In this document: positions 6,027 through 47,228 of the stretch, one piece after another
Numbering within the stretch: position 1 is the stretch's first letter
Layout of the letters: every line of letters starts with the position of its first letter
DNA from: Phyllobacterium endophyticum
Lineage (GTDB): Bacteria > Pseudomonadota > Alphaproteobacteria > Rhizobiales > Rhizobiaceae
Direction: 5' to 3'
Assembly: GCF_003010935.1 (NCBI RefSeq)
Contig: NZ_PGGN01000002.1
Location: 248,001 to 312,000 of the forward strand
DNA: 64,000 nt
Notes under the pieces: model-generated
Seen by the model: the letters and a program-made list of their open reading frames with translations, nothing else
What the model was told of the DNA's origin: nothing
Databases searched by the model: none
Program-made: the position numbers and the translations under genes

Positions 6027-6347
6027 TTGTCAGAAGACCCCACCCATAAGGAAAGCCAGGCCAACAAGGCGCATCACAGCCACAAGAAGCGGCGCCATAT
6101 GCGCATCTTCGGCCGTCACGTGCCGGTGCCGCAGTCGGTGGCAATGCGCCGCACGCTGGGCGGCGTGTTGATCGCGGGCGGTGCCTTGGGGTTCCTGCCT
6201 GTCCTGGGCTTCTGGATGGTTCCGCTCGGGTTGGTTGTCCTCTCGCAGGATTCCGCGCTCGTCAGGCGCAAGCGTCGCCAGATAGAGGTGAAGCTCGGCC
6301 GCCGCTGGAAGAGCGGATGGTTCAATTCCGACAAGGACAAGATCTAA
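6027..6347 (+). CDS. Small conserved membrane protein
   Basis: The reading frame gives 106 residues from a TTG at 6027, or 86 from the ATG at 6087. The TTG has a purine-rich AAGAGAAGA upstream and would add a Lys/His-rich leader. The core is one hydrophobic hairpin (LGGVLIAGGALGFLPVLGFWMVPLGLVVLS) followed by a basic tail (RRKRRQIEVKLGRRWKSGW). This arrangement, two short membrane spans with a Gly-Phe-Leu-Pro turn, recurs in rhizobial hypothetical proteins and resembles the PGPGW group. The function is unknown. Confidence 0.7.
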   Translation: MSEDPTHKESQANKAHHSHKKRRHMRIFGRHVPVPQSVAMRRTLGGVLIAGGALGFLPVLGFWMVPLGLVVLSQDSALVRRKRRQIEVKLGRRWKSGWFNSDKDKI

Positions 6348-6395
6348 GCCGGCGTCATTGCAGGCGGGTGCCCGTTCTTCGGCTCGTTCCCGATC

Positions 6396-8333
6396 CTAGT
6401 TCGCCAAGGCTTTGGCGATGTGAGATGCCAGATCGGCCTGGGTATAGGGTTTTGCCAGCCGGGGGATATCGATATCCATGCCCGGGGGCAAATCCGCGTA
6501 GCCTGTTGCAATCAGGACAGGAAGGCCCGGCTTCAACAATCTCGCTGCCTTGGCAAGTTCCGCACCGGTCATCTTCGGCATGGAATAGTCGGTGATGAGA
6601 AGGTCGACTTCCTCTCCAGCTTCCAGGATTTCCAGTGCGTCCTTCCCGGAATGGGCTTCGATTACCTCGTGACCCAGATCCTCCAGCATATCGACGGTGC
6701 TCATGGCGATCAGAGCGTCATCGTCCACCATCAATATCCTGAACTTTGCCTCCACGATCTCGGGGCTGACCTCAACTCCGGGGTTCGCACTGCTCTTCGA
6801 ACCTGTGCTGACAGGCAACCATAACTCCGCTTTTGTCCCGGCTCCCGTAGAACTCGATAACCTGAGCGCGCCCTTGAGCTGGACCGCGAGACCGTGGATC
6901 ATGGATAGACCGAGGCCGGTCCCTTTTCCAAGTTCCTTCGTCGAGAAGAAAGGATCAATGGCCCTTTCAAGCGTCTCAGGCGTCATGCCCTGACCGTTGT
7001 CACGCACCGACATGACAACGTAGGTTCCCGCGGTCAGGTCCTGTGTCGACGCAGCCACTTCCATTTTCTGAAGCCCAATGCCGATTTCTCCACTCTTTGA
7101 AATCGCGTCGCGTGAATTGACGACCAGATTGAGGAGAGCAAGTTCTATCTGATTGGCATCGGCCAGAACGGGTGGCAGGGCAGCTGGCAGGTCGTAGTTC
7201 AACTGAATGTTGGAGCCGACAGATCGCCTGAGCAGGTCATTCATTCCCCTGACAAGTTCGATAAGATCGACCGGCTCGACCTTCAGGTCCTGCCGCCGGG
7301 CAAACGCCAGCAATCTCTGGGTCAGTGCCGCTCCCCTTTGTGCACCCTTCAATGCGCCATCGATCAGCCGGGTCGCTTTCGGATCATTCATGCAATGCTT
7401 GCGCAACAGGTCGAGATTGCCCAGCACTGCCATCAGCAGATTGTTGAAATCGTGCGCAACGCCGCCTGTGAGGTGGCCTATGGCCTCCATCTTCTGCGCC
7501 TGTCTCAGCTGTTCCTCGGCGATCTCGCGCTGCTTCACCTGCGCAAGAAGCGATTGGTGGGCATCGTGGAGTTCCAGCGTGCGCTCGACAACGCGATCCT
7601 CAAGTGTGCCGTTAAGTTCGATGAGCTCTTTTTCAGCGATCTTACGTGCCGTTATATCAGATGAAACACCAACGAGCCTTGAAACATTGCCATGCCGGTC
7701 GCGTACGGCCCGTCCCCTGAACTCCGCCCAATGCGGACTTGAATCCTGCCAGATGGTGCGGCACTCGAGTTCGAAGTCCTCGCCGCTCGAGATTGCCTTG
7801 TCTATGAGCGATTGCATTGTGCCGCGATCATCCGGATGGATGGTGCCGAGCAGTTCGGTGTCGGTGAAACTGTCGTCCGGGTTCCTGCCGAATACCGCCT
7901 TGCAAACATCCGATGTCACGAGCACTCCGGTGGCAAGGTCATATTCCCAGGAGCCAAGCCGCCCGGCCCGCAGGGCTGTCTGCAGCCGGCGCTCGCCCTC
8001 ACTCAGTTCTTCCATTCTACCCAGGGCTTCATATTGTCGGGCCCTTGCCCGACGAGCGGTCTTCGCAATGCTGATGAAGCTGGTGGCGTGGAACGGGCGC
8101 TCAAAGAACGTCACGTTGCGCAATATCTCGGACACTCTCGCCGCTGCCGGGTTGCGCTCCGGTCCGCCGCCGCGCTGTGTCAGAACGATAAACGGCAGGT
8201 CCGACCAGCTGGGCTGATGTTCCACCCACGCGGAAAGGGGCTTGAGATCGGCATGGCGAATTGCTTCCTCCGTTGTTACGACGAAAGTGACGCGTTCGCC
8301 GAGGGCGCGGCAAAGACTTTCCAGATCCGGCAT
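6396..8333 (-). CDS. PAS-containing hybrid sensor histidine kinase
   Basis: At least 645 residues, counted from the first ATG at 8333. The order is a degenerate receiver-like N-terminal domain (1-95), a PAS domain with PAC (about 120-230), a coiled linker, a HisKA domain with GGVAHDFNNLL (His 294), an HATPase with NLVVNSRDAI, VRDNGQGM and GKGTGLGLS, and a C-terminal receiver with VDDD and the phospho-accepting Asp 582 in LLITDYSMP. There is no membrane segment, so it is cytoplasmic. Coding sense continues upstream of 8333 in the same frame to about 8438, where it overlaps the end of the KaiC-like gene, but no ATG, GTG or TTG is available there; see findings. It is co-transcribed with the KaiC-like ATPase. 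Confidence 0.93.
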   Translation of the reverse strand: MPDLESLCRALGERVTFVVTTEEAIRHADLKPLSAWVEHQPSWSDLPFIVLTQRGGGPERNPAAARVSEILRNVTFFERPFHATSFISIAKTARRARARQYEALGRMEELSEGERRLQTALRAGRLGSWEYDLATGVLVTSDVCKAVFGRNPDDSFTDTELLGTIHPDDRGTMQSLIDKAISSGEDFELECRTIWQDSSPHWAEFRGRAVRDRHGNVSRLVGVSSDITARKIAEKELIELNGTLEDRVVERTLELHDAHQSLLAQVKQREIAEEQLRQAQKMEAIGHLTGGVAHDFNNLLMAVLGNLDLLRKHCMNDPKATRLIDGALKGAQRGAALTQRLLAFARRQDLKVEPVDLIELVRGMNDLLRRSVGSNIQLNYDLPAALPPVLADANQIELALLNLVVNSRDAISKSGEIGIGLQKMEVAASTQDLTAGTYVVMSVRDNGQGMTPETLERAIDPFFSTKELGKGTGLGLSMIHGLAVQLKGALRLSSSTGAGTKAELWLPVSTGSKSSANPGVEVSPEIVEAKFRILMVDDDALIAMSTVDMLEDLGHEVIEAHSGKDALEILEAGEEVDLLITDYSMPKMTGAELAKAARLLKPGLPVLIATGYADLPPGMDIDIPRLAKPYTQADLASHIAKALAN

Positions 8334-8430
8334 GATCTCGGAGGCAATCTCGGCCTCCCGGAGAATCGAGACGGCAACCGCCGCGTCCCTGCCGCCAGGC
8401 GCATAGATAAGTGCAGCTTTGTTTATGCTC

Positions 8431-9942
8431 TCAGAAATGATCTGGATCCGCCTGACTTGGCTTTAACAACGGGTCTACCTTGCCGACAAACTGCGGCACG
8501 CCACGCAACACGCCCTGGAACTCATCGAGAGGCTGACCGAGCGACAATCCTTGACTGGATATCCGGAATTCCCGGATCGTATCCTCGTGGCGGCCCGTCC
8601 TCTTCTTGATGACAGAGACAGCCCTGCGAACCCTGCCATGTGCCTCGAAATAACGGAGAAGGACCACTGTGTCGGCGAGATAAGTAACGTCGACAGGCGC
8701 TTTCATGTCGCCGACCAGGCCATGCTGGGCGACGGTGAGAACCGTTGTCGCTCCCTGGCGATTGAGATATTGCAGCAATTCGTGGATGTGCAGGACGAGG
8801 GCGTTTTCCTCCGGCATGGATGCCTGATAGCCATTCAAGCTGTCGACCACGACAGTTTTGGCGTTCGTGCTGTCGACATGCTCGCGGACGCGATGGGCAA
8901 ACTCGCCCGGAGAGAGTTCCGCAGCGTCAAGCTGCTCTATGTGAAGGTTCCCATCGTCCCGCATCTGCTGGAGATCGATACCGATTGCCTTGGCGCGTGC
9001 GAACAAAAGGCCAAGCTCTTCGTCAAAAACAAAGATGGCAGCCTTTTCTCCGCGATTGATGGCGGACATGATGAACTGGAGTGCAAACGTGCTTTTGCCC
9101 GTACCGGCGGGTCCGAGAACAAGGCAGCTCGAGCCGCGCTCGAGGCCGCCGCCAAGAAGATCATCCAGCTCGCCAATGCCACTCGGCAAAACGTCGCGCG
9201 TGAACTCTCGGCGGTGCTCCAGCGCCACGAGGCGCGGAAACGCCGAAACACCGCCAGTCTTGATGATGAAATCATGATAGCCGCCGCGAAAAGCCTGGCC
9301 CCGATATTTGAGGACGCGAAGGCGGCGCCGTTCGGATCCGTAGGTAGGTGCGAGTTCTTCGAGTTTTATGACGCCGTGAACAACACTATGGACGGTCTTG
9401 TCCTGACTGCTTGAAGTCAGATCGTCGAGGAGCAAGACCGTTGCACCCTGCCTGGCGAAATAGTGCTTGATCGCCAGTATCTGCCGGCGATAGCGGAGCG
9501 ATCCCTGCGCCAAAAGCCTGATCTCCGACAGGCTGTCCAGAACAACCCGGCGCGGCCGGACACGCTCGAACTCCTCGAAGATGGCCTTGGTCGTCTCGCC
9601 AAGCTCCAGATCCGAGGAATAGAGGAGGCTTTGCTGCTGCTCGGCGTCAAGCAGGCTTTCCGGCGGCACAAGCTCGAAAACCCTTATGTTCTCGCCAATC
9701 GTGAAACCGTGGGAGCTTGCCCCTTCACGAAGCTCATCCTCGGTTTCAGAGAGCGTGACGTAGAGGCCTTTCTCGCCTTTAGCTGCGCCCTCGAGCAGGA
9801 AACTCAACGCGATCGTGGTCTTTCCCGTACCGGGATTTCCCTCCAGCAAAAATACCCGGCCCTCGCTCAGTCCTCCTGCTAGTATTTCGTCCAGTCCGGG
9901 AATCCCAGTTCGAGCTTTTTTCGATCTGGGTCGAGAATTCAT
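8431..9942 (-). CDS. KaiC-like double-domain RecA-fold ATPase
   Basis: Encodes 503 residues with two KaiC domains. CI (about 10-240) has the P-loop GNPGTGKTT, and CII (about 250-490) has GPAGTGKST. Both carry Walker B-like runs ending in DSL (RRVVLDSLSEI, KTVVVDSLNGY). Length and layout match cyanobacterial KaiC (519), but the positions aligned with its phospho-sites S431/T432 appear to be Thr 420-Tyr 421. No kaiA or kaiB is in the window. The gene is first in an operon with a hybrid histidine kinase that starts in its last codons. A consensus EcfG-type promoter stands about 100 bases upstream, so the module is probably induced in general stress. Use as a clock or as a stress-signalling switch is inference. 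Confidence 0.92.
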   Translation of the reverse strand: MNSRPRSKKARTGIPGLDEILAGGLSEGRVFLLEGNPGTGKTTIALSFLLEGAAKGEKGLYVTLSETEDELREGASSHGFTIGENIRVFELVPPESLLDAEQQQSLLYSSDLELGETTKAIFEEFERVRPRRVVLDSLSEIRLLAQGSLRYRRQILAIKHYFARQGATVLLLDDLTSSSQDKTVHSVVHGVIKLEELAPTYGSERRRLRVLKYRGQAFRGGYHDFIIKTGGVSAFPRLVALEHRREFTRDVLPSGIGELDDLLGGGLERGSSCLVLGPAGTGKSTFALQFIMSAINRGEKAAIFVFDEELGLLFARAKAIGIDLQQMRDDGNLHIEQLDAAELSPGEFAHRVREHVDSTNAKTVVVDSLNGYQASMPEENALVLHIHELLQYLNRQGATTVLTVAQHGLVGDMKAPVDVTYLADTVVLLRYFEAHGRVRRAVSVIKKRTGRHEDTIREFRISSQGLSLGQPLDEFQGVLRGVPQFVGKVDPLLKPSQADPDHF

Positions 9943-10038
9943 GTTGGAGCTCCATGAGATGTGTGGGGTGACGCGGCAAGAACGGCACTGGACCTTCTAC
10001 GGGCGGTCGCCCCCGCAGACGGCAATTCAGCCCTGATA

Positions 10039-10063
10039 AACGACTGCACGTCGAATTGGTTCC
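10039..10063 (-). promoter_or_regulatory. EcfG-type general-stress promoter before the KaiC-like gene
   Basis: On the minus strand GGAAC is followed by exactly 16 bases and CGTT, a full match to the EcfG/RpoE2 consensus of Rhizobiales. It reads toward the KaiC-like gene; the -10 box lies 97 bases before the ATG at 9942, implying a leader of roughly 90 bases. Confidence 0.65.
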
Positions 10064-10199
10064 TTCGATCTCGTCTGAAAACGACACATACTTTTAGGGG
10101 GAGCGACGATAGCCATGCGCGCGCGATCCACGCTAATGGTCCGCAGTCGGACCGTCAGCCTATGCGAAGCCTCGAGACAACGCAGAGGTCAAGCATTGC

Positions 10200-11681
10200 T
10201 CAAGGGAAGTAGCCTATGGCCTCGCCGAGTTTGACGAGGACGATATCTCCATCCCTTACCACCGAACCGGCGTTGGGCCAGGAGGGCATCGACCTGTATC
10301 TGCCTACGAGGCCCCGCCGCTCGGCTTCCGGCAGGAGCTGAAGATTTTCATAGCCGAGCAGTTTCATATAGGCCGCGATGCGGCCAGCATTGCCGTTATC
10401 CCAGGAAAAGAAGGAGCCGGCGGCAGATGAGGTCCTGCCGGTCCGAAAGACCGGTTTTGGGGCGGGCAGGCCTCCAAAGAAATCGACCTTGGTAACCTGC
10501 GTCAAGTCGGCGACAGACGCGATACGCTGATAGATCTGCGCTGCGGCGCTCCGGTCATGTTCCGCCACGAGATTCCTGACGGCCTGATACTGGCTTATAA
10601 CCGCCACTGACTGAATGGTGAGAAGAGCAATTGCGGCGATCGAGACATAGCGGATCGCCTTGACGCGATCGTGAAGCGCCAGAATGGAAAGGGCCCATAT
10701 GGCGATCGGCACGCCAAGCAATGCACGATCGGGTAAACCGCTGCCACCTGACGCGAAGGCGAGGCCCAACGGCACACTCATGAGCGACCCGACGAGGCAA
10801 AGGTTCACCCACGAACCGCGACTTCCAGCAATCGCCCCCATGACCACTACTACACCGACGATGAGGAAAGAGCCGAATACCCGCGGTGTGCCAAAGTAGA
10901 TGTTTGCAGCCTGAAACGCCGTTTTGGCCAGTACCCACAGCGGCGAGTCCAGGAAGAGGTCCAGTCGCAGGAATTGGGCTACATAGCCGCCGGGCAGCAG
11001 GCCAAAGCCGAAGTAGAACAATTTCTGTATGGCATAGTTCAATAATGTTGCGGCGATCAGGATCAGGGCAGCCTGTACAGCCAAGCCTGTTCTGTCTTTG
11101 AGGTTTGCAAAAGAAGGGTTGATCAGCAGAAGCGCAATGATCATGGTCGGGTAGACGACGACGAAGGCCTGATAAGTGCCGATGGCCATGGTGAGCGCGG
11201 CGATTTCCGCGGCGACTAGCCAGCCAGGTGTACCGTTTTCGGCCCGCCTGGACTTTATCGCGAGGGCGGCGAGGGCGCAGAGAAGCAAGCTGACGCCGGC
11301 ACCCGCAATGTTGGAGGGGAACTCCGCGATGAAGCTCCAGATGGGGAAGCCGCAGAAAATGGGAAAGGTCAGGAGCGTTCGCCAATCGAGCGGCAGGGAG
11401 CAAGACTTGAGGACCAGCAGGTAGGCAGCGCATGCCAAAAGGCCGAACAAGGCGATTGTAAAATAGGGAACGAGGTGCGGAGGCAGGATGAACGTGGTCA
11501 GGACATAGGCAAACCAGCGGCCCTGTGTAATCCAGTAATGATGGTTCGGGGCGATCGTCGTCCATTCGGCGTCGATCGTCAGTGGCATTGCGGTGAGCAT
11601 GCGAAAGTAAACGAAGGCAAAGATAAGCCAAAGTTTGACAAAGTCGCTTGCCCGCTGCTCCAGATACATAAGAATATCCAT
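10200..11681 (-). CDS. GtrII-like membrane glycosyltransferase
   Basis: Encodes 493 residues with about ten hydrophobic segments through the first 370 and a soluble C-terminal part. An acidic pair near the start of the first loop (TIDAEW, about residues 36-41) and the HHYWITQGRWFAYVLTTFILP stretch fit the GtrII family of polytopic glucosyltransferases, which add glucose from a polyprenyl carrier to surface polysaccharide outside the inner membrane. The usual gtrA/gtrB partners are not adjacent, so it may act on another glycan. The ATG at 11681 lies in an AT-rich leader. The family call is moderate. Confidence 0.7.
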   Translation of the reverse strand: MDILMYLEQRASDFVKLWLIFAFVYFRMLTAMPLTIDAEWTTIAPNHHYWITQGRWFAYVLTTFILPPHLVPYFTIALFGLLACAAYLLVLKSCSLPLDWRTLLTFPIFCGFPIWSFIAEFPSNIAGAGVSLLLCALAALAIKSRRAENGTPGWLVAAEIAALTMAIGTYQAFVVVYPTMIIALLLINPSFANLKDRTGLAVQAALILIAATLLNYAIQKLFYFGFGLLPGGYVAQFLRLDLFLDSPLWVLAKTAFQAANIYFGTPRVFGSFLIVGVVVVMGAIAGSRGSWVNLCLVGSLMSVPLGLAFASGGSGLPDRALLGVPIAIWALSILALHDRVKAIRYVSIAAIALLTIQSVAVISQYQAVRNLVAEHDRSAAAQIYQRIASVADLTQVTKVDFFGGLPAPKPVFRTGRTSSAAGSFFSWDNGNAGRIAAYMKLLGYENLQLLPEAERRGLVGRYRSMPSWPNAGSVVRDGDIVLVKLGEAIGYFP

Positions 11682-29402: not shown

Positions 29403-30797
29403 ATGAAGGGGTTTATAGTGTTCATAGCGGGCAAGCGATTTTTAACCGCAGCGCTGTTGTCAGCCACGGTACTAACCTCTACGCCTTCGATGGCCGAGAC
29501 GATTTTCGGAGCGATGGCCAAGGCCTACGAGAGAAACTCCACTGTCAATGCCGACAGGGCGGGCGTACGCGTAACGGACGAAGGCGTGGCGATTGCAAAA
29601 TCCGGGTACCGCCCGACTGTATCGGCGACAGGAAACCTGTCCAGCACCTATACGCGGCAAGATGGGGGCGCGAGCGGCCGTGCCGACATCGGGCAATTCG
29701 GCATCGAGGTCAATCAGCTGCTGTTCGACGGGTTCACAACGCGTAACACAGTCGCATCTGCAAAAACACAGGTGCTCGCAGCCCGTGAAAACCTGCGCAA
29801 CAGCCAGCAGAACCTGCTTTTCAGCGCCGCGCAAGCCTATATGGACCTGTATCTGGCACGGCAGATCGTGGTGCTTCGACAGAAGAACCTCGAATTCCTC
29901 GACGAACAGCTACGCGCTGCACGCGCCCGTTTCGACGTAGGTGAAGGAACGCGGACGGACGTCGCACAGGCCGAAGCATCGAAAGCTTCGGCGATTGCTA
30001 CGCTGAGCGCGGCAAAATCCGATGCTCAGATCGCCGAATCCACCTATATCCAAACTGTCGGAGCAGAGCCGGGTCGTCTCAGCCCGGCTGCGATGGCGTC
30101 GAAATCCTTGCCGAAATCCATGGAACAGGGATTCAGCATTGCCACCAACAATCATCCGGCGATCCTCGCCACGCAGTTTGCGGTCGATTCGGCGGGATAT
30201 GACGTAAAAGCGCGGGAGGGGCAGCTTCTGCCGCAGGTGAGTCTCAATGGCGCGATCACCCGCAATGAGATCTTTGCGCCCGGCATCGGTAACCAGACGA
30301 CGGACTCGACGCAAGCAAGTGCGGGTATCCAGGTGACAATTCCGATCTATAGCGGCGGCAGGACATCGGCTCAGGTTCGTCAATCCAAGGAGACACTGGG
30401 TCAGCGGCGCATCGAAGTCGATGTGGCACGCGACCAGGTTCGCCAGGCTATTGCCCAGGCCTATTCGCAGATGGCATCGGCGAAGGCGCAGATCATCGCC
30501 CAAAGATCGGTGGTTGCAGCAGCGGAACTCGCCCTCAACGGCGTGATCGAAGAGCGCAAAGTCGGCCAGCGTACGACGCTCGACGTGTTGAACGCCCAAG
30601 CCGATGTGCTGACCGGACAGGTCAGCCTTGCCCAGGCGGAGCGCGACAGCGTGGTGGCGAGCTACGCCGTCCTGCTCGCCGTGGGACGCCTGAATCCGAG
30701 CCAGATCGGCTTGCAGGTTGCCGAGTATCGTCCCGAAGAGCATTACGAGGCCGTGAAGGACAAGTGGATCGGCCTGCGCACGCCAGACGGCCGCTAG
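29403..30797 (+). CDS. tolC: TolC family outer-membrane efflux channel
   Basis: Encodes 464 residues from the ATG at 29403; GAAAG lies just upstream and the preceding in-frame residues are not part of a signal peptide. The signal peptide ends about TPSMA. The mature protein is TolC-like with two repeats of long coiled helices (AKTQVLAARENLRNSQQNLL; RARFDVGEGTRTDVAQAEAS; QASAGIQVTIPIYSGGRTSA; EERKVGQRTTLDVLNAQADV). It forms the outer-membrane duct for type I secretion and drug efflux. It lies between pcm and popZ as in many Rhizobiales. Confidence 0.93.
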   Translation: MKGFIVFIAGKRFLTAALLSATVLTSTPSMAETIFGAMAKAYERNSTVNADRAGVRVTDEGVAIAKSGYRPTVSATGNLSSTYTRQDGGASGRADIGQFGIEVNQLLFDGFTTRNTVASAKTQVLAARENLRNSQQNLLFSAAQAYMDLYLARQIVVLRQKNLEFLDEQLRAARARFDVGEGTRTDVAQAEASKASAIATLSAAKSDAQIAESTYIQTVGAEPGRLSPAAMASKSLPKSMEQGFSIATNNHPAILATQFAVDSAGYDVKAREGQLLPQVSLNGAITRNEIFAPGIGNQTTDSTQASAGIQVTIPIYSGGRTSAQVRQSKETLGQRRIEVDVARDQVRQAIAQAYSQMASAKAQIIAQRSVVAAAELALNGVIEERKVGQRTTLDVLNAQADVLTGQVSLAQAERDSVVASYAVLLAVGRLNPSQIGLQVAEYRPEEHYEAVKDKWIGLRTPDGR

Positions 30798-31000
30798 GCA
30801 ACGAAAATAATCCTGTGAAAACCGAACTTTGCCGTCGGGGCATGTCCCCGGCGGCAAAGTGCATTTCGGCCAGGTTTCACAAAAGTCTGTGGGTTAGGCC
30901 CAAACAATCCCCGCGGGGATTCTCAAACGCAATGCAAGCCTCTACACTGGATACAGATTCGTTGCTGCGCAATGAAACAAGATGTAGTGGGCAAAGTATC

Positions 31001-31816
31001 ATGGCACAATCATCCAGCGTCGCACGGGAACCCTCGATGGAGGAAATTCTCGCGTCGATCCGCCGTATCATCGAGGAAAGCGATACGGGGCGTCCCGAAG
31101 AAGCGGCGCCTCAGCCCGTCAACTCCGATGTGCCACCGCGTGCAGCGATTCCAGAACTTCCGCCTGCGGTGCACGCAGGCGAGGAGGCCGAGCTTCCGCC
31201 GCGCCAGGGCATCGCCGTGCCGCCCGCAGCGCCGCGCTCCTATTCAAGCGCATCCGAACGCCCTCTGACGCCAATGCGATCCGGGCCGATCGAGCGCGAA
31301 GCTTCGCGGCCCGAACCGCTTGCCAAAGCCGAGATGGTGAAGGTTCCGGTCGAATCGATCGAGCCGGCGAGCACAGTCGATGCGAACGATGCGTTGGGTG
31401 GAGATGTTCCGGAGGCCCTGTTGTCACCGGAGGTTGCGCCGGAGTCGCCGGCAGAGGAGGAATTCATCGCCGAACCCGTCGATGTGGCGAGTGACGCCGG
31501 TTCGCCGCAAGCGGACGGGGCCATGCGAGCGCCCGCCGTCCAACATACGAAGACTTCGGAGGACGAGGAAGTATCGATGGACCTCCAGCGCGCCCTTGAA
31601 CCGATCCTATCCGAAACTGTCGAGCGGCAGGTGAGCGCGTCGTTCGAGGATTTGTCGTTCGCGGTACGAAGCGAGCAACGGCGGTCGTTCGACGAGATCG
31701 CCCAGGAAATCATGCGGCCCCTGCTACAGGAATGGCTGGACAACAATCTTCCGACGCTTGTCGAACGCCTTGTGCGCGAGGAAATCGAGCGCGTGGCACG
31801 CGGCGGGCGGCGGTAA
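31001..31816 (+). CDS. popZ: Polar organising protein PopZ (DUF2497)
   Basis: Encodes 271 residues from the ATG at 31001. The N-terminal helix PSMEEILASIRRIIEES (12-27) is the PopZ binding region for client proteins. A long Pro/Glu/Ala-rich acidic linker follows, and the C-terminal helices (RSFDEIAQEIMRPLLQEWLD then NNLPTLVERLVREEIERVAR) drive self-assembly. PopZ forms a condensate at the cell pole that gathers ParB and signalling proteins. The linker is longer than in Caulobacter (total 177), as usual in Rhizobiales. It sits between tolC and valS. Confidence 0.9.
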   Translation: MAQSSSVAREPSMEEILASIRRIIEESDTGRPEEAAPQPVNSDVPPRAAIPELPPAVHAGEEAELPPRQGIAVPPAAPRSYSSASERPLTPMRSGPIEREASRPEPLAKAEMVKVPVESIEPASTVDANDALGGDVPEALLSPEVAPESPAEEEFIAEPVDVASDAGSPQADGAMRAPAVQHTKTSEDEEVSMDLQRALEPILSETVERQVSASFEDLSFAVRSEQRRSFDEIAQEIMRPLLQEWLDNNLPTLVERLVREEIERVARGGRR

Positions 31817-45470: not shown

Positions 45471-47228
45471 ATGAACATCTTCGCCGATTTCGACGCGCGG
45501 ATTAAGAACGCCCTGCAAGCGCTTGATTTAAAAACCACAGATGGTTCTGCAGTGGATTTGTCCCGCGTGGGCGTCGAGCCCCCGCGCGATCCCAGCCACG
45601 GGGATATCGCCACCAATGCGGCGATGGTACTCTCCAGGGCGGTCGGCCAGAACCCGCGCGAACTCGCCGTCAAGATTGGCGATGCGCTGAAGAACGACCC
45701 CGATGTCGGCTCTGTTGATGTCGCAGGGCCGGGTTTCATCAATCTGCGGCTCAAGGATGTCTACTGGCACCGGCAACTCGCCGTGATGCTCGGCGCTGGC
45801 GTCGATTATGGACGCTCGAAGCTCGGCTACGGACATCGGGTCAACGTCGAATATGTGTCGGCCAATCCGACCGGCCCCATGCATGTCGGTCATTGCCGGG
45901 GTGCGGTGGTCGGCGATGCGCTCGCCAACCTGCTCAAATTTGCAGGTTATGACGTGGCCAAGGAGTATTACATAAACGATGCGGGCGCACAGATCGATGT
46001 GCTGGCAAGCTCTGTGATGTTGCGTTACCGCGAGGCGCTGGGTGAGCAGATCGGCGATATTCCTGCCGGGCTCTATCCTGGCGATTATCTCGTACCCGTG
46101 GGGCAGGCACTTGCCGCCGAGCATGGGACGAGGCTCCTGGAGATGCCGGAAGACGAGGCGATGGCTATCGTCAAGGAGCGGACGATCGACGCAATGATGG
46201 CTATGATCCGCGACGACCTCGCGTCGCTCAATGTCCATCATGACGTATTCTTTTCAGAACGGACGCTGCACGCCAACAATGCCAAGCTGATCCGGTCTGC
46301 GATCAACGATCTGACACTGAAAGGTCACGTCTACAAGGGCAAACTGCCGCCGCCCAAGGGGCAATTACCCGAAGATTGGGAAGATCGGGAGCAGACGCTG
46401 TTCCGGTCGACCGATGTGGGCGACGATATCGACCGGCCATTGGTGAAATCGGATGGCCAGTTCACCTATTTTGCCGCCGATGTTGCCTATTTCAAGGACA
46501 AGTACGACCGGCATTTCGACGAGATGATCTATGTGCTCGGCGCAGACCATGGCGGTTACGTCAAACGGCTCGAGTCCCTGGCGCGTGCAGTATCAGGCGG
46601 TACGGCGAAGTTGACCGTTCTGATATGCCAACTCGTCAAGCTCTACCGGAACGGCGAACCCGTGCGGATGTCGAAGCGCTCTGGCGAGTTCGTCACCTTG
46701 CGCGACGTCGTGGAAGAGGTTGGACGCGATCCCGTCCGGTTCATGATGCTGTACCGGAAGAACGACGCGCCGCTCGATTTCGACTTTGCCAAGGTGACCG
46801 AACATTCCAAGGACAATCCTGTTTTCTACGTTCAGTATGCCTCGGCCAGATGCCACTCGGTTTTCCGGCAGGCAATGGAACAGCTCGGTATCGGCGAAGT
46901 CCAGCTCGCGGCGAGCGCACAGCATTTCGATCTACTGACGGATGAGAGTGAAATCGCGCTCATCCGCAAGCTTGCGGAATACCCGCGACTGATCGAAACA
47001 GCAGCCTTGCATCAGGAGCCGCACAGGCTTGCTTTTTACCTCTACGATCTTGCAAGTTCGCTTCATACGCAGTGGAACAAGGGAACCGAAAACCCGGACT
47101 TACGTTTTATTAAGGTTAACGATCCAAACTTGTCCCAAGCCAGGCTAGGGCTGGTGCAGGTTGTTTCGAAGGTCTTGACGTCCGGATTGTCTATTATTGG
47201 TGCGGACGCCCCGACTGAAATGCGTTAG
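45471..47228 (+). CDS. argS: Arginyl-tRNA synthetase
   Basis: Encodes 585 residues of class Ia. The N-terminal Arg-tRNA domain (1-~95) is followed by [20 protein letters not shown], the HIGH equivalent; the second signature is the variant RMSKRSGEF. The DALR anticodon domain ends the protein ([32 protein letters not shown]). It charges tRNA-Arg. Downstream is a gene for a SPOR protein, as in many Rhizobiales. Confidence 0.97.

What the first reader, a model, noticed from the sequence alone, without database searches (positions are those of the whole stretch)
8431..10063. KaiC-like ATPase/hybrid kinase operon behind a consensus EcfG stress promoter
GGAAC-N16-CGTT at 10039-10063, on the correct strand and about 97 bases before the start codon, is a full match to the EcfG consensus. 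The operon pairs a two-domain KaiC ATPase with a soluble PAS hybrid kinase and has no kaiA or kaiB. This points to a KaiC-based signalling module that is switched on in general stress rather than, or as well as, by a clock.
Basis: partly seen in the sequence, partly recalled or inferred. Interest (0 to 1): 0.72.

Follow-up and report, generated by a model that had tools for sequence, protein, structure and literature searches.

The report
Stress-promoter KaiC and kinase pair
A soil or plant-associated bacterium carries a relative of a cyanobacterial clock protein paired with its own sensor kinase, and the pair appears to be switched on by the general stress response; the pairing is already known, but this stress wiring and an unusual start codon of the kinase were not found in the papers searched.

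Summary
The site is real: GGAAC-N16-CGTT at 10063..10039 (-), 96 nt before the kaiC ATG. Alone it is weak evidence (112 matches genome-wide, fewer than a backward-pattern control). It is convincing because it is kept in all four Phyllobacterium orthologues with changed spacers, and in a separate Devosia clade (4 of 4). The other 73 of 80 named orthologues lack it; 27, all Rhizobiaceae-clade, carry an RpoH2-like promoter instead (inference), one step below the same stress sigma factor.
The operon belongs to a module described in 2011 in Ramlibacter: kaiC plus an HK with a KaiC-specific N-terminal domain, no kaiB. Added here: that domain is modelled as a pseudo-receiver (pLDDT 94, phospho-Asp lost); it sits directly behind 39 of 39 close KaiCs and matches behind 0 of 45 distant ones; the kinase core can be swapped (HisKA hybrid or HWE); and in most Rhizobiaceae and Phyllobacterium loci the kinase probably starts at an AUU at the kaiC stop. 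In 10 of 50 such loci, the window among them, no ATG/GTG/TTG precedes it in frame.
Best reading: a stress-induced KaiC ATPase whose state is read by a scarce pseudo-receiver kinase. Timing is unproven.

The parts
10039..10063 (-). EcfG-type promoter: -35 GGAAC (10063..10059), 16-nt spacer, -10 CGTT (10042..10039)
   Evidence: same kind of site in 3 other Phyllobacterium species and in a Devosia clade
8431..9942 (-). kaiC, 503 aa, two KaiC ATPase domains; Walker A in both; T420-Y421 at the place of the cyanobacterial S431/T432 phosphosites
6396..8438 (-). hybrid histidine kinase, 680 aa if started at ATT 8438..8436; 8-nt overlap with kaiC; soluble
8436..8438 (-). probable AUU start codon of the kinase, overlapping the kaiC stop (CATTTCTGA)
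   Evidence: no ATG/GTG/TTG in frame between the upstream stop and the conserved domain; ATT at the corresponding place in 49 other loci
8447..8452 (-). GGCGGA, Shine-Dalgarno-like element 8 nt before the ATT (GAGGA in many orthologues; the window's copy is weaker)
7989..8438 (-). pseudo-receiver domain (PsR; very probably 'RtaNt' of the 2011 Ramlibacter paper), no Pfam match
7665..7916 (-). PAS_3 domain
7290..7475 (-). HisKA domain; AHDFNN box, His at residue 329 of the 680-aa reading
6807..7160 (-). HATPase_c domain
6399..6737 (-). C-terminal true receiver domain with LLITDYSM and AKPY motifs (Pfam match covers 6489-6737)

Best explanation
This is a two-gene stress-signalling operon. Under stress, EcfG-RNA polymerase starts transcription at 10063-10039 and makes KaiC and its dedicated kinase together (promoter: inferred from conservation). 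KaiC forms a two-ring ATPase whose nucleotide or phosphorylation state changes slowly (established for cyanobacterial KaiC; inferred here). The kinase is made from an AUU start coupled to the end of kaiC, so it is scarce compared with KaiC (start: supported by sequence; scarcity inferred). Its N-terminal pseudo-receiver docks on KaiC and passes KaiC's state through a long helix and the PAS domain to the HisKA/ATPase core (docking inferred from the gene linkage and from core swapping; also proposed in 2011). The phosphate goes to the kinase's own receiver and then to a phosphotransfer protein not found next to it. So the stress response itself sets the dose of a KaiC-gated kinase; it may act as a duration or energy sensor within the stress response, not necessarily as a clock.
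For: EcfG site present and kept with changed spacers in 4 of 4 Phyllobacterium and, separately, 4 of 4 rows of a Devosia clade. EcfG-NepR-PhyR core in the genome. No E. coli-type sigma70 site in 6200-10300 (0 found, 1.5 in shuffles). KaiC/PsR linkage: 39 of 39 listed KaiCs at 43% identity or more have a PsR match 11-71 nt behind the KaiC match, 0 of 45 at 40% or less do, and 39 of 41 PsR matches are kaiC-adjacent. All 80 named loci have it within 900 nt behind kaiC, though the profile was built from 63 of them. Core swapping: HWE kinases with the same N-terminal domain behind kaiC in two Methylobacterium species and in the second pair of this genome. PsR fold and lost phospho-Asp. AUU start. 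Stress phenotypes of KaiC proteins in M. extorquens (section of PMC8069551 read); a title for Pseudomonas (reference list of PMC11372060).
Against: 73 of 80 named orthologue loci lack the strict EcfG site, so control by EcfG is not a general property of the family. The motif's genome-wide count is not above a backward control. No expression data. No direct evidence for KaiC-kinase contact. In M. extorquens the delta-kaiC2 strain was MORE resistant to UV and heat, so a KaiC of this kind may restrain rather than aid resistance. The 2011 paper likened the N-terminal domain to KaiB/SasA as well as to a receiver, and proposed an hourglass. The output of the kinase is unknown.
Confidence: 0.6

Rival explanations
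1. The operon is a KaiC-only hourglass or proto-circadian timer that reads time of day, and the stress promoter is incidental or one of several inputs.
For: KaiC homology; this reading was proposed for the kaiC/Nt_HK context in Ramlibacter (PMC3164672, section read) and as a possibility for rhizobial KaiC in general (PMC11346424, passages). T420 and Y421 are both phosphorylatable in principle and invariant (81 of 81).
Against: The phosphosite pair is Thr-Tyr, not Ser-Thr, in 81 of 81; the first residue of the CI glutamate pair is Ser in 80 of 81 and the first of the CII pair is Asp in 81 of 81 (the pairs are recalled). No KaiB over the cut-off. The family is found in only 20 of 199 genomes of the order.
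Confidence: 0.2
2. The GGAAC-N16-CGTT match is chance and the operon is read from another promoter.
For: Genome-wide the motif is not over-represented (112 against 204 for the backward pattern); most orthologues lack it.
Against: Kept in all four Phyllobacterium and all four Devosia-clade loci with diverged spacers; 0 of 80 for four wrong-spacing and reversed controls.
Confidence: 0.1
3. The kinase is not initiated at AUU; ribosomes reach it from kaiC by a +1 frameshift at the UCC-UAA/UGA end of kaiC, making a KaiC-kinase fusion, or it starts at canonical codons inside kaiC.
For: The kinase lies in the +1 frame and ATTCCTAA/ATTCCTGA is common at the junction. 26 of 50 loci have an ATG, GTG or TTG within 6 codons upstream of the ATT, and C58 is annotated from such an ATG.
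Against: 10 of 50 loci have no canonical start up to the upstream stop. ATT (or ATC) stays in place where the kaiC stop has moved and no UCC-stop exists (L035, L039, L064, L025). An SD-like core is at the right distance in 42 of 50 against 6.9% of random coding windows. Other clades have ATG/GTG/TTG starts there.
Confidence: 0.12

Closest known systems
kaiC/Nt_HK 'second kaiC context' (Ramlibacter tataouinensis Rta_04330/Rta_04340; PMC3164672)
   Same: kaiC followed directly by a kinase with a conserved N-terminal domain; no kaiB; S-Y/T-Y/S-F sites in that group (T-Y here); co-transcription shown there; contact with KaiC through the domain already proposed
   Different: Here an EcfG promoter, a probable AUU kinase start and a domain modelled as a pseudo-receiver; the paper reported weak similarity to a receiver and, weaker, to SasA and KaiB. 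Ramlibacter sequences were not compared here
Methylobacterium (Methylorubrum) extorquens AM1 kaiC2-kaiR2 (PMC8069551, section read)
   Same: KaiC with one partner gene, tied to UV and temperature resistance; two other Methylobacterium species have a window-type kaiC plus an HWE kinase with the same N-terminal domain
   Different: AM1 KaiC2 has Ser426; I did not have the AM1 sequences, so orthology was not tested; deleting AM1 kaiC2 raised resistance; AM1 also has a kaiC1-kaiB cluster
KaiC-like proteins of environmental Pseudomonas (Terrettaz et al. 2023; title and citation sentence seen in PMC11372060 only)
   Same: KaiC homologues that contribute to stress resistance according to the title
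   Different: Paper not held; sequence relation not tested with a named genome
Cyanobacterial KaiC with SasA/CikA/KaiA
   Same: KaiC state read by histidine kinases; CikA and KaiA carry pseudo-receivers (passages of PMC12632262)
   Different: No KaiB over the cut-off here; here the pseudo-receiver is at the kinase's N-terminus and its gene is linked to kaiC; SasA's N-terminus is a KaiB-like fold (recalled)
EcfG (RpoE2/RpoE4) regulon of Rhizobiales
   Same: ggAAC-N16-cgTT, as printed for R. etli (passages of PMC4167512)
   Different: No paper of the library holds both words KaiC and EcfG; other names of EcfG were not searched together with KaiC

Membership tests
kaiC/Nt_HK context (PMC3164672) | kaiC followed directly by a specific HK | tested here: met
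   8-nt overlap in the window; the N-terminal domain follows kaiC within 900 nt in 80 of 80 named loci
kaiC/Nt_HK context (PMC3164672) | HK carries the conserved N-terminal domain | tested here: met
   65-row alignment A1; identity with RtaNt itself is inferred from the description, the Ramlibacter sequence was not compared
kaiC/Nt_HK context (PMC3164672) | no kaiB elsewhere in the genome | tested here: met
   no PF07689 match over the cut-off; two below it
kaiC/Nt_HK context (PMC3164672) | phosphosite pair S-Y, T-Y or S-F | tested here: met
   T-Y in 81 of 81; S-F in the second KaiC of this genome
EcfG regulon | consensus site at promoter distance on the right strand | tested here: met
EcfG regulon | site conserved in orthologues | tested here: inconclusive
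   met in Phyllobacterium (4 of 4) and a Devosia clade (4 of 4); absent in 73 of 80 named loci
EcfG regulon | EcfG/NepR/PhyR present in the genome | tested here: met
EcfG regulon | EcfG-dependent transcript | not testable with these tools
   needs RNA
KaiABC clock | kaiB present | tested here: not met
KaiABC clock | kaiA present | not tested
   not searched for
KaiABC clock | Ser-Thr phosphosite pair in CII | tested here: not met
   Thr-Tyr; position taken from the alignment with a solved KaiC (8zn5) that has the Ser-Thr motif
Receiver domains able to be phosphorylated (for the N-terminal domain) | phospho-acceptor Asp at the end of strand 3 | tested here: not met
   at the last residue of strand 3 of the model Thr in 57, Ala in 6, other in 2 of 65, Asp in none; Lys place Arg in 65 of 65 (register by the model's strands)
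Receiver domains (fold) | five alternating strands and helices | tested here: met
   (Foldseek TM-scores 0.53-0.68 by query length in the rows shown)

The most novel reading that the evidence does not exclude
The alphaproteobacterial general stress response contains a slow KaiC arm: EcfG, or in Rhizobiaceae its target RpoH2, makes KaiC together with a scarce AUU-initiated pseudo-receiver kinase, and the KaiC ATPase cycle sets how long after stress onset the kinase fires and feeds back on the response. The pseudo-receiver would be a general KaiC-docking module that can be mounted on unrelated kinase cores.
Probability: 0.15. Interest if true: 0.8.

Novelty: new variant of a known kind. Interest (0 to 1): 0.5.

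Why it matters
[quoted passage not shown] This work points to the partner, the likely contact domain, the sigma factor that probably turns the pair on in Phyllobacterium and Devosia, and a start codon that can mislead annotation of the kinase. Each is directly testable in ordinary soil bacteria. A 2025 review says that how bacterial pseudo-receivers are switched remains a mystery (abstract and passages of PMC12632262); here is one family with an obvious candidate ligand, KaiC.

Tried and rejected
General EcfG control of the family: rejected, 7 of 80 named loci. Of six plasmid-borne orthologues looked at, 0 had the strict site.

RpoH2 reading of the Rhizobiaceae promoter: kept as inference only. 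27 of 80 loci have [CG]TTG[CT]...CTA[AGT]NT against 0.14 expected; I chose this pattern after reading the upstream sequences, so the P value is not a blind test. The base after TTG is C or T in 28 of 31 looser matches, like CTTGCC-N15-16-CCTATCT of RpoH2 and unlike CTTGAA of RpoH1 (passage of PMC4843759) or cTTGAc of sigma70 (passage of PMC4167512). RpoH and RpoD promoter predictions overlap heavily (section of PMC3616915), and in R. sphaeroides specificity is graded (passages of PMC3441632).

A third ECF-like form, GGAAC-N17-CGTC, occurs in one clade (L017, L026, L054, L056, pattern also chosen after looking) and in A. fabrum C58; not followed. Offsets printed for 'H-like' matches are shifted by 150 and were not used.

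KaiB/SasA-like fold for the N-terminal domain: not supported; by their titles the 50 rows shown are nearly all response regulators or receivers and none is KaiB or SasA.

Limits. One search scored at most 7 candidates a genome, at most 19, at most 9 and at most 3, so tallies may miss copies. The 80 named loci are the best 80 of 261. One search called no ORF at kaiC in 8 of 80 loci and no partner in L046; one search replaces that count. The kinase-start script (which ended in an error after printing its tables) placed 74 of 81 loci; L043, L047, L050, L055, L062, L065 and L073 were not placed. Of 51 ATT loci I dropped L051, whose start is TTG. In 48 of the 50 the ATT overlaps the kaiC stop; in L041 and L067 it lies behind it. 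In neighbouring rows L009, L027 and L052 the codon is not ATT, and in L025 it is ATC. In one search the site of L008 was not aligned with the other three.

Full report
What is there. On the minus strand of the window a kaiC homologue (8431-9942, 503 aa) is followed with an 8-nt overlap by a hybrid histidine kinase (6396-8438), and then comes a convergent plus-strand ORF at 6027-6347. The site GGAAC-N16-CGTT at 10063..10039 lies in the gap between the kaiC start and the upstream codirectional gtrII-like gene (10200-11681; Pfam Glucos_trans_II). The genome is close to Phyllobacterium: the nearest named orthologues are P. myrsinacearum (89%), P. trifolii (88%) and P. pellucidum (85%).

Is the promoter more than chance? 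In one genome, barely: 3 strict matches in 64 kb against 1.03 expected, and 112 in 5.5 Mb against 204 for the backward pattern. Across orthologues, yes. Of 80 named loci (the best 80 of 261), 7 have the strict site upstream against 0.28 expected, and four control patterns with wrong spacing or reversed halves give 0 of 80 each. The seven are the three named Phyllobacterium and four loci of one Devosia clade (three labelled Devosia, one unlabelled MAG). On a tree of 82 KaiC rows these two groups are separate clades, each with full support, and the label needs two changes. Spacers and flanks are largely changed while the two boxes stay (in one search the aligner did not bring the site of L008 into register). 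In the genus scan 4 of 20 genomes have this kaiC (own, 89, 88 and 86%), and all four have the site; the three others have the same upstream sequences as the named loci. The genome has nepR, ecfG and phyR side by side.

What the other orthologues have. 73 of 80 named loci lack the strict EcfG site. An element of the form [CG]TTG[CT]-N-CTA[AGT]NT stands upstream in 27 of 80, against 0.14 expected, all of them in the Rhizobiaceae clade of the tree. The pattern was drawn up after reading the upstream sequences. It resembles the RpoH2 consensus CTTGCC-N15-16-CCTATCT more than RpoH1 or sigma70 (passages of PMC4843759, and PMC4167512). rpoH2 itself is RpoE2-dependent in S. meliloti (passages of PMC3616915) and RpoE4-controlled in R. 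etli (passages of PMC4167512). If right, both promoter types lead to the general stress response, one directly and one through RpoH2. This is inference; RpoH and sigma70 predictions overlap widely (section of PMC3616915).

The KaiC. Both Walker A motifs are kept. At the place of cyanobacterial S431/T432 the family has Thr-Tyr, 81 of 81 rows; CII has D-E-E (81 of 81) and CI has S-E (80 and 81 of 81). A Tyr as second site is known in some KaiC3 (passage of PMC5520375), and T-Y in the Ramlibacter survey. KaiB is not found over the cut-off.

The kinase's first domain. The N-terminal ~150 residues have no Pfam match. A profile of 65 rows has its best PDB sequence matches among response regulators (FixJ, E 8e-4). 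AlphaFold gives a (beta-alpha)5 fold ending in a long helix, pLDDT 93.6, pTM 0.87, and Foldseek finds receivers (best FixJ and DctD; TM-scores 0.53-0.68 by query length in the rows shown). At the end of strand 3, where receivers carry the phospho-Asp, there is Thr in 57 of 65 and never Asp; the acidic pair is replaced by Ala-Pro in nearly all; the Lys place is Arg in 65 of 65. So it is a pseudo-receiver.

It belongs to KaiC. In 199 genomes of the order, 20 have a KaiC at E 1e-50 and the same 20 have the domain; the one extra genome (G025) has a FixJ-like true response regulator, and a second, 31% identical KaiC of G155 has no such domain near it. In 398 genomes of the phylum, 39 of 39 listed KaiCs with 43% identity or more have the domain (11-71 nt from match to match), 0 of 45 with 40% or less do, and 39 of 41 domain matches are kaiC-adjacent. 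The two orphans are kinases without a kaiC in the 6 kb fetched, in genomes that also have a pair; the two KaiCs at 37-40% are followed by proteins whose N-terminus looks receiver-like by eye but misses the profile. All 80 named loci have the domain within 900 nt behind kaiC (63 of them had supplied the profile). The rest of the kinase is exchangeable: HisKA hybrids in the window, L048 and L075, HWE kinases in two Methylobacterium species and in the second pair of this genome (G000:C6, L107:4495-7061). This argues that the domain, not the core, is what faces KaiC.

The start codon. In the window the kinase frame has no ATG, GTG or TTG between its upstream stop and the conserved LIYAPGGRD. An ATT sits 8 or 9 codons before that motif in 51 of the 74 loci that could be placed (81 examined); one, L051, has a TTG start and was dropped, leaving 50, nearly all Rhizobiaceae or Phyllobacterium. 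In 48 of these the ATT overlaps the kaiC stop, in 45 by 8 nt. Ten of the 50 have no canonical start at all up to the upstream stop; 26 have one within 6 codons upstream, so in those the start is open. An SD-like core lies 7-14 nt before the ATT in 42 of 50, against 6.9% of random coding windows; Ile is ATT in 273 of 1356 Ile codons of the first 400 codons of the kinases. The ATT stays where the kaiC stop has moved (L035, L039, L064; ATC in L025). I take it as a conserved non-canonical start coupled to kaiC; low kinase dose would follow, but this was not measured. A. fabrum C58 has the same junction and is annotated from an ATG three codons upstream.

What is known. [quoted passage not shown] KaiC proteins affect UV and temperature resistance in M. 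extorquens, KaiC1 positively and KaiC2 negatively (section of PMC8069551), and a 2023 title links KaiC-like proteins to stress resistance in Pseudomonas (PMC11372060; paper not held). A search for papers with KaiC and EcfG found none (other names of EcfG not tried); one for KaiC, histidine kinase, pseudo-receiver and proteobacteria (3 of 4 terms) found 26 and listed 20, among them the Ramlibacter paper. So the module is known; its EcfG wiring, the pseudo-receiver assignment of its first domain by model and the AUU start were not met in these searches, which cover open-licence papers only. A search for AUU starts was read as a listing only.

How it most likely works is given under the best explanation. 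Shown here are the gene pair, the conserved site, the domain, its linkage and the junction. Inferred are EcfG dependence, docking, kinase control, low dose and any timing. After rechecking I raised the odds of the start-codon rival from 0.08 to 0.12, because it now includes canonical starts inside kaiC, which 26 of 50 loci allow.

Noticed in passing
G000:C6, L107:4495-7061: A second KaiC (43% identical, Ser-Phe site) directly followed by a 346-aa HWE kinase with the same kind of N-terminal domain. HWE kinases often act on PhyR (recalled), so this pair might feed the stress response; no strict EcfG site upstream.
   Followed up: partly
window 8436-8438 and 49 other loci: Conserved ATT at the kinase start, mostly overlapping the kaiC stop; probable AUU initiation.
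   Followed up: yes
L017, L026, L054, L056 upstream of kaiC; L152 (A. fabrum C58) 84 nt before the annotated start: GGAAC-N17-CGTC, an ECF-like site with a different -10, in one clade.
   Followed up: no
   Followed up: no
L161 (G577:C11:142882-143292) and L162 (G492:C21:291452-291880): Kinases with the KaiC-linked pseudo-receiver but no kaiC in the 6 kb fetched, in genomes that hold a kaiC pair elsewhere; possible extra readers of the same KaiC.
   Followed up: partly
L158 (G100:C1:3790000-3796000): A kaiC that appears split over two frames in front of a kinase with the pseudo-receiver; sequencing error or decay.
   Followed up: no
window 31385-31410 (-) and 47082-47106 (+): The two other strict EcfG matches of the window lie inside ORFs (on the opposite strand of 30764-31816; within 45471-47228, by eye argS-like, about 230 nt before the next start) and look like chance.
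   Followed up: partly
plasmids collection, 237 records: KaiCs of this kind are common on plasmids, Sinorhizobium (60) and Agrobacterium (51) first (237 records; best place 60-80% identical in 88, under 60% in 149; PLSDB typing 114 conjugative, 114 non-mobilizable, 9 mobilizable), so the trait looks accessory.
   Followed up: no
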